Shown here: positions 6,118 through 12,552 of the stretch, one piece after another
Position numbering within the stretch: position 1 is the stretch's first letter
Layout of the letters: each line of letters begins with the position of its first letter
Source: Draconibacterium aestuarii
GTDB lineage: Bacteria > Bacteroidota > Bacteroidia > Bacteroidales > Prolixibacteraceae
Assembly: GCA_026671195.1 (NCBI GenBank)
Contig: JAPOHD010000013.1
Coordinates: 62,001-126,000, forward strand
Direction: 5' to 3'
DNA length: 64,000 nucleotides
The notes under the pieces: generated by a model
Told to the model about the DNA's origin: nothing
The model's database searches: none
The model's input: the letters and a program-made list of their open reading frames with translations, nothing else
Made by a program: the position numbers and the translations under genes

Positions 6118-7122
6118 ATGAATATTAAAGAACAACTACAACATAAAATCGATAACAAAACCAAACCACTTGGATCGCTTGGTTTGCTCGAAGATATTGC
6201 CCTGCAAATTGGAGAGGTGCAAAACACTTTATCGCCCAAAATAGAAAATCCGGCCTTGCTGGTATTTGCCGCCGATCATGGTTTGGCCGATGAAGGAATT
6301 AGTCCTTACCCAAAAGATGTAACCTGGCAAATGGTGATGAACTTTTGCGGAGGTGGGGCATCTATCAATGTTTTTTGTCGCCAACACGATATTCAACTGC
6401 ATGTTTTTGATGTGGGTGTCGATTACGATTTCCCGGTAGAATTACCGGTTGAAAAAGTTAAGGTGGCCCGCGGTAGCCGCAATATGCGCATCGAGCCGGC
6501 AATGTCACCTGAAGAATGCCGGGCTGCAATGGAAGCAGGTGCAGCCGCAGTGCGCAAAAAGGCACAAAACGGTTGTAATACCATTGCCTGTGGCGAAATG
6601 GGAATCGGAAACACTTCTCCTTCGTCGTTGTTGATGCATAAATTTACCGGCTATTCGGTTGAAGAATGTACCGGGCGTGGCTCCGGATTAAACGAGGGGC
6701 AGGTGGATCGTAAAACCCGGATCCTACAGGAAATTGCCGAAAAATATAATCCGGAAACACCCGAAGAAACCCTGGCAACGCTGGGAGGGCTCGAAATAGC
6801 CGCCATGGTGGGTGCTTATCTCGAGGCCAAAAAGCAAAATATGCTTATTTTGATCGATGGATTTATTTCAACAGCTGCCGTGCTTACTGCTATTCAAATT
6901 GATAGTGCCGTAAAAGAGAATTGTATTTTTTGCCACAGTTCCGATGAAAAGGGACATAAGTTGATGTTGGAATATTTGGGTGTAAAACCGTTGTTGCAAC
7001 TCGGAATGCGTTTGGGTGAAGGAACGGGAGCCGCAGTGGCAATGCCACTGGTAAAGTCGGCCGTTAATTTCCTGAATGAAATGAGCAGCATGGAAGATGC
7101 CGGCGTTTCGAATAAAGAATAA
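6118..7122 (+). CDS. cobT: Nicotinate-nucleotide-dimethylbenzimidazole phosphoribosyltransferase
   Basis: The enzyme transfers the phosphoribosyl group of nicotinate mononucleotide to the lower-ligand base, giving alpha-ribazole phosphate. Recognisable blocks are NKTKPLGSLGLLE at the N-terminus, LVFAADHGLADEGISPYP, the GEMGIGNTSPSS block, GRGSGLNEGQVDRK, and a GEGTGAAVAMPL ending. It has 334 residues, close to family length. It follows cobU after a 112-bp gap with no clear signals and is followed by the 21-bp repeat array. Confidence 0.95.
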   Translation: MNIKEQLQHKIDNKTKPLGSLGLLEDIALQIGEVQNTLSPKIENPALLVFAADHGLADEGISPYPKDVTWQMVMNFCGGGASINVFCRQHDIQLHVFDVGVDYDFPVELPVEKVKVARGSRNMRIEPAMSPEECRAAMEAGAAAVRKKAQNGCNTIACGEMGIGNTSPSSLLMHKFTGYSVEECTGRGSGLNEGQVDRKTRILQEIAEKYNPETPEETLATLGGLEIAAMVGAYLEAKKQNMLILIDGFISTAAVLTAIQIDSAVKENCIFCHSSDEKGHKLMLEYLGVKPLLQLGMRLGEGTGAAVAMPLVKSAVNFLNEMSSMEDAGVSNKE

Positions 7123-7267
7123 ACGACAGTTGTATAGGAACGGGGGCGATTGTTAAACGATAAACTTCTGGTGCCAGTTGTAAAACCGGTTGGAAACACA
7201 AAAAATGTATCCGATGTAGAAGTAAAACCCGTTCAGCACAGATAGCTGTAACCCTGGTTCTGTTTTA

Positions 7268-7666
7268 ATTTGGGTTGATCGCGAAACAACCAAGGTTGAT
7301 ACTAAAACGACCATGGTAGGATTAAAATCAACTTAGGTAGGAATAGAAACGACCAAGGTAGAATTAAAAACAACTATGGATGATAATATAACAACCACGG
7401 TTGGATTGAAATCAACATAGGTAGGAAATGAATCAGCCAAGGTAGGATAGAAAACAACCTAGGTTGTAAATGAAACAACTATAGTTGGAATTATAACAAC
7501 CATGGTTGGAATGAAATCAACCATGGTAGGATAGAAATCAACTTAGGTTGTAGATGAAACAACTATAGAGGGAATAAAAACAACCACGGTAGGATTGGAA
7601 ACAACCAAAGTAGGAATAAAATCAATCATTGCAGATACTAAACCAACTTAGGTCGATTTGAATAAT
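7268..7666 (+). repeat. Array of nineteen 21-bp degenerate repeats
   Basis: Reading from 7268 in steps of exactly 21 bp gives 19 consecutive units with no insertion or deletion. The approximate consensus is ACCAWGGTWGGAATRAAAWC plus a final A. The first half has a near-palindromic core (ACCATGGT, ACCTAGGT, ACCAAGGT) and the second half is purine-rich. Stops occur in several frames, so it is not an obvious coding repeat. It fills most of the 556-bp gap between cobT and cobS and ends 12 bp before the cobS ATG. Units differ by a few bases each, unlike a recently expanded microsatellite. Confidence 0.9.
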
Positions 7667-7678
7667 AGTCAATATAGA

Positions 7679-8440
7679 ATGAAAAACGAATTAAAAATAT
7701 TTCTTACAGCCCTGAGTTTTTATACACGGGTGCCGGTTGGAAACATAAAAGGCTGGTCGGAGAGAATGCTGAATAAATCCACCCGCTATTTTCCTTTCAT
7801 CGGAATACTGGTGGGCGGAGTGGGAGCGCTGGTCTTTACTGTTTTTAATTTGTATTTACCGGTTTCAATGGCGGTGATATTAAGTATGGTAAGTACCATA
7901 TTGTTCACTGGTGCATTTCACGAAGATGGTTTTGCCGATTTTTGCGATGGATTTGGTGGCGGCTATACACCAGAGAAAATCTTGCTGATAATGAAAGACA
8001 GCCGCATTGGAACCTATGGATCCATCGGTTTAATATCCATACTGGGGGCAAAATTTATTACGCTAATGCACACCGATGCCATGCGAATTCCAATCATTTT
8101 AATTGCCGGACATGCCTTTAGCCGGGTATTCCCGGTGTTGTTAATTTATACATCGGAATATGCACGACTGGATGCATCGAGCAAAACAAAACCGGTTGGC
8201 AAAGCCGATTCATTATTCTCTTTGCTTTTTGCAGTTCTAATTGGAAGCGCACCTTTAATTTTCTTTGGGTGGCACGAGATTATAATTGTTGTGGCATTAT
8301 TAATGAGTACATCGTTCTTTTTCCGGAATTATATTACCCGAAAACTGGGAGGTTATACCGGCGATGTGTTGGGCGCTTTACAACAATTGTGCGAAGTAGG
8401 ATTTTATTTGGCTATTTTGGCCTGTGAGAATTGCTTATGA
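7679..8440 (+). CDS. cobS: Adenosylcobinamide-GDP ribazoletransferase
   Basis: CobS joins AdoCbi-GDP to alpha-ribazole (phosphate) in the membrane, completing the nucleotide loop. The HEDGFADFCDGFGGG motif near residue 80 is the family signature, followed by KDSRIGTYGSIGL. Several hydrophobic segments indicate an integral membrane protein. The ATG at 7679 is preferred over the TTG at 7658, which falls inside the last unit of the 21-bp repeat. It overlaps cobC by an ATGA. Confidence 0.95.
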   Translation: MKNELKIFLTALSFYTRVPVGNIKGWSERMLNKSTRYFPFIGILVGGVGALVFTVFNLYLPVSMAVILSMVSTILFTGAFHEDGFADFCDGFGGGYTPEKILLIMKDSRIGTYGSIGLISILGAKFITLMHTDAMRIPIILIAGHAFSRVFPVLLIYTSEYARLDASSKTKPVGKADSLFSLLFAVLIGSAPLIFFGWHEIIIVVALLMSTSFFFRNYITRKLGGYTGDVLGALQQLCEVGFYLAILACENCL

Positions 8441-11825: not shown

Positions 11826-11909
11826 TAAAAAAAGGATAGGTCAACACCTATCCTTTTCACTAACTAAACCAATAAAACTAATCAAACCTAAACTTATGAA
11901 CTAAAACTT
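11826..11909 (-). ncRNA. Predicted small RNA, array copy 2
   Basis: Same layout as copy 1: TACATTTG -7 box at 11916-11923, TTAACC 20 nt upstream, a near-identical ~60-nt body, and a terminator hairpin GGATAGGTGTTGACCTATCC ending in a T-run. The stem bases differ from copy 1 but stay paired (compensatory change). Confidence 0.5.
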
Positions 11910-12092
11910 ATGCTGCAAATGTAGGGTGAAAAAATGGAATTGAGGTTAACTGAAAGTTAAAAAACATGTTTTATAACATATCTTAAATCTATCTTAATTC
12001 GAGGAAATCTATCGTGTGGTTGTTTGGAGGTGATTGGAGAAGGAAAGATGGTGTTGGAGCTTATTCATAAAAATGAATTCAAGGTTTTGGAA

Positions 12093-12176
12093 ATAAAAAA
12101 GGATAGGTCAATACCCATCCTTTTCACTAACTAAACCAATAAAACTAATCAAACCTAAACTTATGAACTAAAACTT
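12093..12176 (-). ncRNA. Predicted small RNA, array copy 3
   Basis: The TACATTTG box is at 12183-12190, with the same body and terminator. It is spaced exactly 267 bp from copy 2, and the intervening sequence is also duplicated, so copies 2-4 arose by tandem duplication. Confidence 0.5.
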
Positions 12177-12359
12177 ATGCTGCAAATGTAGGGTGAAAAA
12201 ATGGATTTGAGGTTAACTGAAAGTTAAAAAACATGTTTTATAACATATCTTAAATCTATCTTAATTCGAGGAAATCTATCGTGTGGTTGTTTGGAGATGT
12301 TTTGAAAAGGAAAGATGGTGTTGGAGCTTATTCATAAAAATGAATTCAAGGTTTTGGAA

Positions 12360-12443
12360 ATAAAAAAGGATAGGTCAACACCTATCCTTTTCACTAACTA
12401 AACCAATAAAACTAATCAAACCTAAACTTATGAACTAAAACTT
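12360..12443 (-). ncRNA. Predicted small RNA, array copy 4
   Basis: The TATCTTTG box is at 12450-12457. The body is again near-identical and ends in the GGATAGGTGTTGACCTATCC hairpin plus a T-run. It is the promoter-proximal copy, about 100 nt beyond the floA operon terminator; its -33 region is diverged. Confidence 0.48.
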
Positions 12444-12552
12444 ATGCTACAAAGATATGTTGAATAACATAAATGGATGCTAAAAATTTTTAAAAAGATT
12501 GATTTTTATATTTGTTTTAACCCAAAGTTAACTCAGGAACTACATTTAAAAG

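What the first reader, a model, noticed from the sequence alone, without database searches (positions are those of the whole stretch)
7268..7666. Nineteen 21-bp repeats in exact register inside a cobalamin operon
The units step by exactly 21 bp for 399 bp without a single indel, although individual bases vary. Strict spacing with loose sequence suggests selection on spacing. Two helical turns per unit would place the ACC-AWGG-T core on one DNA face, as for a protein that polymerises along DNA, or curved DNA. It lies between cobT and cobS and ends 12 bp before the cobS ATG, so it may set cobS-cbiB expression. I know of no described element like it. Alternative: a neutral minisatellite with recent, unusually clean expansion.
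Basis: seen in the sequence. Interest (0 to 1): 0.72.

Follow-up and report, generated by a model that had tools for sequence, protein, structure and literature searches.

The report
Phased array of palindromic DNA sites
Between two vitamin-B12 genes this bacterium carries about 19 imperfect copies of a small mirror-symmetric DNA site, spaced exactly two helical turns apart; some relatives keep such arrays at the same places with the same spacing although the letters change, so it is probably a docking strip for an unknown DNA-binding protein.

Summary
Observation confirmed: 19 units of 21 bp in strict register (window 7261-7664), between cobT and cobS, in a Draconibacterium genome. It is not peculiar to the cob operon: the genome holds four arrays plus a two-unit piece, and four congeners hold eight more (12 arrays, 153 units). 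The same array position recurs between cobT and cobS (4 of 21 gaps read) and upstream of rfbB (5 of 30, plus a remnant). Without imposing register, 124 of 125 core-to-core steps up to 130 bp are multiples of 21. About 362 substitutions (parsimony) and no in-array indel separate 132 units, where flanking DNA suggests about 17 indels. Changes avoid the half-sites (7.8 per column against 25.2 in the spacer). Array mates are only 62% identical, so this is no recent expansion. Dyad partners do not covary, which argues against RNA hairpins. Best reading: a helically phased array of sites for a dimeric DNA-binding protein, probably regulatory; the protein is unknown and nothing was tested at the bench. 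Main rival: an old neutral minisatellite. Nearest described kinds: BrickBuilt minisatellite, sopC-type centromeres, iterons.

The parts
7261..7664 (+). tandem array of 19 units of 21 bp, each a 12-bp dyad core CAACYWWRGTTG plus 9-bp spacer; the 18 better cores run from 7287 to 7655
7261..7281 (+). degenerate left-terminal unit (core match 9 of 12). The sequence across its left edge, CCCTGGTTCTGTTTT, resembles by eye the left-terminal unit CAACCCTTTCTGTTTTT of the G000, G002 and G012 rfbB arrays and of the third G012 array
   Evidence: BLAST links the rfbB and third G012 ends to each other, not this one
6118..7122 (+). cobT (Pfam DBI_PRT phosphoribosyltransferase), upstream neighbour
   Evidence: E 1.8e-130
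7679..8440 (+). cobS (cobalamin-5-phosphate synthase), downstream neighbour; 23 bp lie between the last core and its ATG
   Evidence: E 1.5e-52; sequence

Best explanation
The array is a set of tandem binding sites for a symmetric (dimeric) DNA-binding protein. Each 12-bp dyad CAACYWWRGTTG takes one dimer, and the fixed 21-bp pitch (two turns of B-DNA) puts all dimers on one face so that neighbours can touch and bind cooperatively. Arrays sit between genes, several of them upstream of a gene (rfbB, a class-III aminotransferase, a susC-type gene) and this one between cobT and cobS, so the most likely output is control of the neighbouring gene by a large protein-DNA complex; occupancy could be tuned by unit number, which changes by whole units. 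Shown by computation: dyad consensus, exact pitch, constraint on half-sites, recurrence at the same positions in relatives. Inferred: the protein, its cooperativity, and any effect on transcription.
For: Twelve arrays in five genomes of the genus. Cores called at 10 of 12 without imposed register: 124 of 125 steps up to 130 bp are multiples of 21. The base profile has one dyad axis: distance 0.222 against 0.476 for the next axis on 132 units; on 119 interior units without threshold 0.236 against 0.488, matched by 1 of 5000 column permutations; the same axis is best in 11 of 11 arrays. The inner pair, C/T (69/45) and its mirror G/A (73/43), has matching spectra (p 0.81). Changes per column: half-sites 7.8, spacer 25.2; the outer core varies less than the spacer between adjacent units in 11 of 11 arrays. 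About 362 substitutions and no in-array indel; flanks show 11 indels of 12 bp or less per 227 substitutions (my count), so 17.5 expected, Poisson P about 2e-8. Same place at cobT-cobS in 4 genomes and before rfbB in 5. The last rfbB core starts 73 bp before a TACTTTTG box in 5 of 6 genomes, 72 in the sixth, whatever the unit number. Dyad partners do not covary.
Against: No binding protein identified. Solo CAACCWWGGTTG sites are not enriched: by my count 50 outside arrays against 97 for the reversed control in 37 genomes, so no regulon outside arrays is visible. Arrays are missing from most congeners: 15 of 21 cobT-cobS gaps have no 21-bp array of any kind and 24 of 30 rfbB upstream regions none, so the function is dispensable. 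Distance from last core to cobS ATG is not constant (29, 29, 35, 56). The mismatch-rate profile alone is not significantly dyad-symmetric (19% of permutations as good). The right half-site often reads GGTAG, breaking symmetry at one position. Units were found and phased with a partly symmetric core pattern, which leans the symmetry measures. The 73-bp constancy may only reflect orthologous flanks. The flank indel ratio comes from few, non-independent pairs, and the parsimony count rests on one tree (366 on a second).
Confidence: 0.55

Rival explanations
1. An old, essentially neutral dispersed minisatellite. Slippage and recombination add and remove whole 21-bp units, which keeps register; the conserved core is only the homology that lets units pair.
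For: Unit number differs between orthologous arrays (10, 9 and 12 profile-scored units at cobT-cobS in G002, G009, G012), and gaps of 21, 42 and 63 bp appear in their alignments. Higher-order blocks of 42 and 105 bp exist. Presence among relatives is patchy. Tandem repeats of 21-23 bp with a similar core occur in some other Bacteroidota with other spacers, and one such array shifts from 21 to 22 bp.
Against: Changes are not spread evenly: the four C/G columns of the half-sites have 2 to 5 changes against 31 to 40 in the freest spacer columns. No in-array indel against about 362 substitutions. Array mates are 62% identical, not recently copied. The dyad axis is the same in 11 of 11 arrays.
Confidence: 0.3
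2. It acts as RNA: tandem hairpins (GGUUG-N9-CAACC) in the cobT-cobS transcript that set termination, stability or cobS translation.
For: All 12 arrays fold better than dinucleotide shuffles (z -2.8 to -10.8); the window array lies between two genes of one apparent operon, close to the cobS start.
Against: The complementary strand has the more negative z in 7 of 12 arrays, as palindrome arrays may. No covariation across the spacer (47 complementary cells, 60 expected) or within units (58, 66 expected); both are below expectation. C-to-T at position 10 is as frequent as G-to-A at position 13 (45 and 43 of 119), whereas RNA would favour the wobble-compatible change. GGTAG breaks pairing without compensation. 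No Rfam match on the array.
Confidence: 0.08
3. A non-autonomous mobile element of the BrickBuilt type (minisatellite inside a MITE) spread by a transposase; the repeats serve transposition, not regulation.
For: Dispersed intergenic copies; the G000, G002 and G012 rfbB arrays and a third G012 array at an unrelated locus share a left-terminal unit (best blastn E 7.3e-9); patchy distribution.
Against: No inverted match between left and right 150-bp flanks above shuffles in 11 of 12 arrays; the twelfth (G009 cob, 12 bp with 1 mismatch against a shuffled maximum of 11) lies inside cobT and cobS by position. No shared right end between loci in BLAST beyond repeat-unit matches. The cobT-cobS gaps of array-free relatives do not resemble, by eye, the array flanks, so no clean empty site was seen. 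Near-identical units are few: 2.8% of pairs within an array.
Confidence: 0.07

Closest known systems
BrickBuilt minisatellite/MITE of Porphyromonas gingivalis (PMC4596501; abstract, sections 5 and 8 and passages read)
   Same: Same class Bacteroidia; 23-nt imperfect tandem repeats without separate spacers, intergenic, 19 loci in one strain, positions shared between strains, variable unit number, predicted long stem-loops.
   Different: BrickBuilt units differ by 0-11% with 0-6% indels inside an element; here array mates differ by about 38% with none. BrickBuilt has leader, tail and 12-nt terminal inverted repeats; no such flanking repeats found here. Period 23 against 21. A dyad profile of the unit is not described in what I read beyond a mention of dyad symmetry.
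F-plasmid centromere sopC/parS_F bound by SopB/ParB (PMC6238139, passages)
   Same: Twelve 43-bp tandem repeats containing ten 16-bp inverted repeats to which ParB binds; pitch near a whole number of helical turns (my arithmetic).
   Different: A plasmid centromere that works with partition genes. Here chromosomal, several loci per genome, metabolic genes as neighbours.
Iteron arrays, e.g. Vibrio cholerae chromosome 2 ori2 12-mers bound by RctB (PMC6090056, passages)
   Same: Six 12-mers head to tail with regular spacing of 10 or 11 bp, about two turns; here 12 plus 9.
   Different: Iterons lie at an origin near an initiator gene and are arranged head to tail; here the sites are dyads and no replication gene was recognised beside the arrays.
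Satellite families of prokaryotes (PMC6749651; abstract, sections 9 and 10 read)
   Same: Dispersed non-coding satellite families exist but are described as rare.
   Different: The families discussed there have microsatellite-derived short repeats or repeats over 30 nt; no 21-bp dyad family appears in the parts I read (additional files not seen).

Membership tests
BrickBuilt-type MITE minisatellite | short imperfect tandem repeat, intergenic, several genome copies | tested here: met
BrickBuilt-type MITE minisatellite | terminal inverted repeats flanking the repeats | tested here: not met
   150-bp flanks of 12 arrays: 11 not above shuffles, one (12 bp, 1 mismatch) marginally and within coding sequence; (pairs of 14 nt or more, 4 loci) gave pairs inside arrays and one local hairpin beside L167's array, none with an arm on each side
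BrickBuilt-type MITE minisatellite | conserved leader and tail | tested here: inconclusive
   one shared left-terminal unit in the rfbB arrays of 3 genomes and one other array, no shared right end
BrickBuilt-type MITE minisatellite | sequence relation to BrickBuilt | not tested
   unit sequence not given in the text read
Plasmid-type centromere (sopC/parS) | tandem repeats holding an inverted repeat for a protein dimer | tested here: met
   (sequence level only; binding not shown)
Plasmid-type centromere (sopC/parS) | adjacent partition genes | tested here: not met
   nearest ORFs are cobT, cobS, rfbB, galE-like, aminotransferase, susC-type and others; 8 proteins checked in Pfam, the rest by eye
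Iteron replication origin | direct repeats at helical pitch | tested here: met
Iteron replication origin | initiator (rep) gene beside the array | tested here: not met
   none among the nearest ORFs; by eye for those not
Neutral minisatellite | changes spread without regard to position, with ordinary indels | tested here: not met
Neutral minisatellite | variable unit number between relatives | tested here: met
Structured cis-regulatory RNA | covarying base pairs | tested here: not met
   (local pairings only; long-range pairing between distant units not tested)

The most novel reading that the evidence does not exclude
Draconibacterium uses a chromosomal class of regulatory strip: about 4 to 19 dimer sites locked at a two-turn pitch, on which an unidentified protein assembles a filament or cluster that controls (and may link) unrelated loci, with strength adjusted by gain and loss of whole units. 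Two relatives (G004, G043) carry a differently spelled 21/42-bp array in the same cobT-cobS gap, which would mean that the pitch itself is what is kept.
Probability: 0.3. Interest if true: 0.8.

Novelty: new variant of a known kind. Interest (0 to 1): 0.58.

Why it matters
Bacterial intergenic minisatellites are usually put down to slippage. Here comparative data separate constraint on pitch and half-sites from turnover of units, giving a concrete, testable case of a phased multi-site array on a chromosome. If a protein binds it, it would be a cooperative DNA-lining protein of Bacteroidota with metabolic targets and an evolvable dosage knob; if not, it is an unusually indel-poor minisatellite that needs a mutational explanation.

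Tried and rejected
Coding relic: the repeat frame (TTxVGxK) meets TAG stops repeatedly in the window array (sequence); no ORF of 90 aa or more lies in it. Other arrays do open chance ORFs: 171 and 112 aa in two frames at C7, about 120 aa at the third G012 array.

Curved DNA: A-rich spacer positions are kept in G000 but not in the G009 rfbB array; rejected as the common feature.

Regulon of single sites: solo CAACCWWGGTTG are fewer (50, my count) than the reversed control (97) in 37 genomes.

Link to the 106-aa gene before the G000 rfbB array: the family occurs in 21 of 37 genomes, including many without arrays, and is missing from G024, which has an array.

Phage or plasmid origin: no BLAST match of the window array in plasmids or phages; a viral-contig scan for three cores gave 2 stretches, both at other pitches.

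Phylum-wide class: the two-core pattern (exact matches only) is found in 1 of 393 genomes of the order sample and 1 of 395 of the phylum sample, each time only the own genome, while the reversed control appears, by my reading of the tables, in 3 and 6 genomes. The collection scan gave 79 stretches, about 54 of them from other phyla or unclassified. Some Bacteroidota among the rest have short arrays with this core at 21, 22 or 23 bp, but the scan asked for this core, so kinship is not shown; one 21-bp hit (Peptoniphilus) lies inside a coding frame.

Papers: ten searches showed me no description of this array in the held library, judged from titles and abstract openings; besides the papers in Closest known systems I saw passages of PMC5771137 and PMC5016525 and otherwise only listings.

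Full report
What is there. The window array is real. Read in 21-mers from 7268 it keeps register for 19 units, and a scan without imposed register, with a profile made from the array itself, finds 18 units from 7282 to 7639 at steps of exactly 21. TRF reports only 7284-7621 and allows indels, because the units are diverged. The unit is a dyad: consensus CAACYWWRGTTG (12 bp) plus a variable 9-bp spacer. cobT (Pfam DBI_PRT) lies upstream and cobS downstream; 23 bp separate the last core from the cobS ATG. An Rfam cobalamin riboswitch lies at 1365-1587, far upstream, and no Rfam family matches the array at gathering thresholds.

It is a dispersed family. In the own genome (G000, 6.37 Mb, 69 contigs) BLAST with the array finds two further arrays. 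A pattern of two cores with any gap from 0 to 30 gives 23 hits and none for the reversed control; every gap printed is 9 or 30, i.e. one or two units, and one more locus (C7) appears. A two-unit profile (R1, sequence only) confirms four arrays and a two-unit piece on C54. Among 41 genomes (own, 24 congeners, 16 of other families) hits with E below 1e-6 occur in five: G000, G002, G009, G012, G024; five more have only weak hits. Contig lengths identify G002 as Draconibacterium sediminis JN14CK-3 and G009 as D. mangrovi GM2-18.

Positions recur. The nearest ORFs show the array between cobT and cobS in G000, G002, G009 and G012, and upstream of rfbB in G000, G002, G009, G012 and G024 (rfbB and galE are my labels for epimerase/dehydratase-family proteins). 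The profile's strand agrees with the gene's at these loci except at G009 rfbB, whose units are nearly symmetric and score better on the other strand. Other arrays lie upstream of a class-III aminotransferase gene on the other strand (G000 C48), between a two-component-type regulator and a susC-type gene (G000 C7; labels by eye and recall), and beside a comM-like gene in G012 (label recalled). I could read 21 cobT-cobS gaps of the 23 genomes with cobS (two loci lacked cobT): 4 hold this family, 2 (G004, G043) a different 21/42-bp array, 15 none. Of 30 rfbB upstream regions read (36 of 37 genomes had rfbB) 5 hold an array, G006 a remnant of about four units by eye, 24 none. Trees group G002, G009 and G006 (rfbB: with G012, G024 and G051 too), away from G000, whose CobT+CobS sister G008 has no array. 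So arrays at the same two sites occur in two separated lineages; whether by loss, repeated gain or exchange I cannot tell.

Spacing is constrained. With cores called at 10 of 12 matches and no register imposed, 124 of 125 steps of at most 130 bp are multiples of 21; the exception, 91, leads to one hit beyond the G009 rfbB array end, and one step of 156 from an isolated hit before the G024 array was above the cut. The 12 arrays hold 153 in-register units, a few of them poor end units. On 132 units of 11 arrays (the C7 array and units under 9 core matches dropped), 131 are distinct, mates in one array are 62.5% identical on average, and parsimony on a FastTree tree gives 362 substitutions (366 on an IQ-TREE tree) with no in-array indel. 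Flanking intergenic alignments of G002 with G009 and with G012 give 11 indels of 12 bp or less for 227 substitutions by my count, so about 17.5 were expected; a Poisson zero has probability about 2e-8, or 2e-5 if only the 227 spacer changes are counted. These pairs are few and not independent. The automatic alignments also list array gaps that are not multiples of 21 (43 in two pairs, 18, 6, and several in the G012-G024 pair); I read them as alignment and boundary effects, because the register-free scan shows no such step inside an array.

Half-sites are constrained. Changes per column average 7.8 in the eight outer core columns, 19.2 in the inner four and 25.2 in the nine spacer columns (IQ-TREE tree); the four C/G columns have 2 to 5. 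Without any core threshold on interior units (119), adjacent units differ less in the outer core than in the spacer in 11 of 11 arrays. The base profile is dyad-symmetric about one axis (0.222 against 0.476 for the next, 132 units; 0.236 against 0.488 on 119 interior units, reached by 1 of 5000 column permutations), the best axis in 11 of 11 arrays. Against this, the mismatch-rate profile alone is not significantly symmetric (19% of permutations), position 16 often reads A (GGTAG) with no counterpart change, and units were phased with a core pattern that is itself partly symmetric.

DNA rather than RNA. Dyad partners do not covary: 58 complementary cells against 66 expected within units, 47 against 60 across the spacer. 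The change C to T at position 10 and its mirror G to A at position 13 are equally frequent (45 and 43 of 119), which fits double-stranded recognition. All 12 arrays fold better than shuffles on both strands, the complementary strand having the more negative z in 7. Long-range pairing between distant units was not tested.

Likely action. I read the array as phased sites for a dimeric protein. At rfbB the last core starts 73 bp before a TACTTTTG box in 5 of 6 genomes and 72 in G012, although the arrays hold about 4 to 15 units; the box resembles the Bacteroidota -7 element TAnnTTTG (recalled; its name seen only in a search listing). This suits an upstream regulatory strip, but five of the six flanks are close orthologues. 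At cobS the distance from last core to ATG varies (35, 29, 29, 56) and I saw no such box there, so the window array may act differently from the rfbB one, or merely be carried.

How it spreads. The rfbB arrays of G000, G002 and G012 and a third G012 array share a left-terminal unit, pointing to copying of whole arrays. No flanking inverted repeats stand out. Units turn over: in G002 and G009 the bases beside the cobT-cobS array match closely while the interior differs in whole units and letters.

Rarity. In 464 kb (window plus 400 kb of G012) a lag scan gives, besides the two arrays, hits at periods 60, 69/36, 36 and 54 (which I took for coding without testing each), short-period runs, and a borderline 21-bp hit at L232 that I did not follow. 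The exact two-core pattern is absent from the other 392 genomes of the order sample and 394 of the phylum sample.

Verdict. A real family of dyad arrays, constrained in pitch and found at conserved positions in part of one genus; nearest in build to BrickBuilt (PMC4596501), sopC (PMC6238139) and RctB 12-mers (PMC6090056), and by the tests made a member of none. Function is inferred.

Noticed in passing
L190 and L192 (G043, G004), cobT-cobS gap: A differently spelled array with 42-bp period made of two 21-bp halves (GAGCATCTTGGTTGTTCAAAA / GAGCATTCTGATTCATCGATA) occupies the same gap in two relatives.
   Followed up: partly
L084, L093, L101, L110, L116, L122; L095, L098, L137, L147; L096, L132, L135: Short arrays or pairs with a CAACCWWGGTTG-type core at 22 bp (six stretches of a horse-faeces Bacteroidaceae MAG, Bacteroides timonensis), 21 bp (four stretches of Bacteroidales Md513_bin63) and 23 bp (two Prevotellaceae/Prevotella loci); kinship unknown.
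   Followed up: partly
window 11828-12453: A 267-bp unit repeated 2.3 times at 97% matches, its consensus holding a GGATAGGT...ACCTATCC inverted repeat, just after the cobalamin genes.
   Followed up: no
G000 C7:20826-21283 (L011, L159): Array amplified as 105-bp blocks of five 21-bp units, three of them decayed; opens two overlapping chance ORFs of 171 and 112 aa.
   Followed up: partly
G000 C19, C48, C54: Three of the five array loci of the genome lie within 1.4 kb of a contig end.
   Followed up: no
L160 7107-7427 and homologues L251-L280: A 106-aa protein family, up to five copies per genome in the genus, without a Pfam match (E up to 0.01) in the copy before the G000 rfbB array.
   Followed up: partly
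L092, L094, L103, L107, L117, L119, L121 and other Actinomycetota loci: Recurrent pairs of CAAC-type palindromes at a 27-bp step, often GGTTGAC...GTCAACC, in Kribbella, Streptomyces, Microbacterium and others.
   Followed up: no
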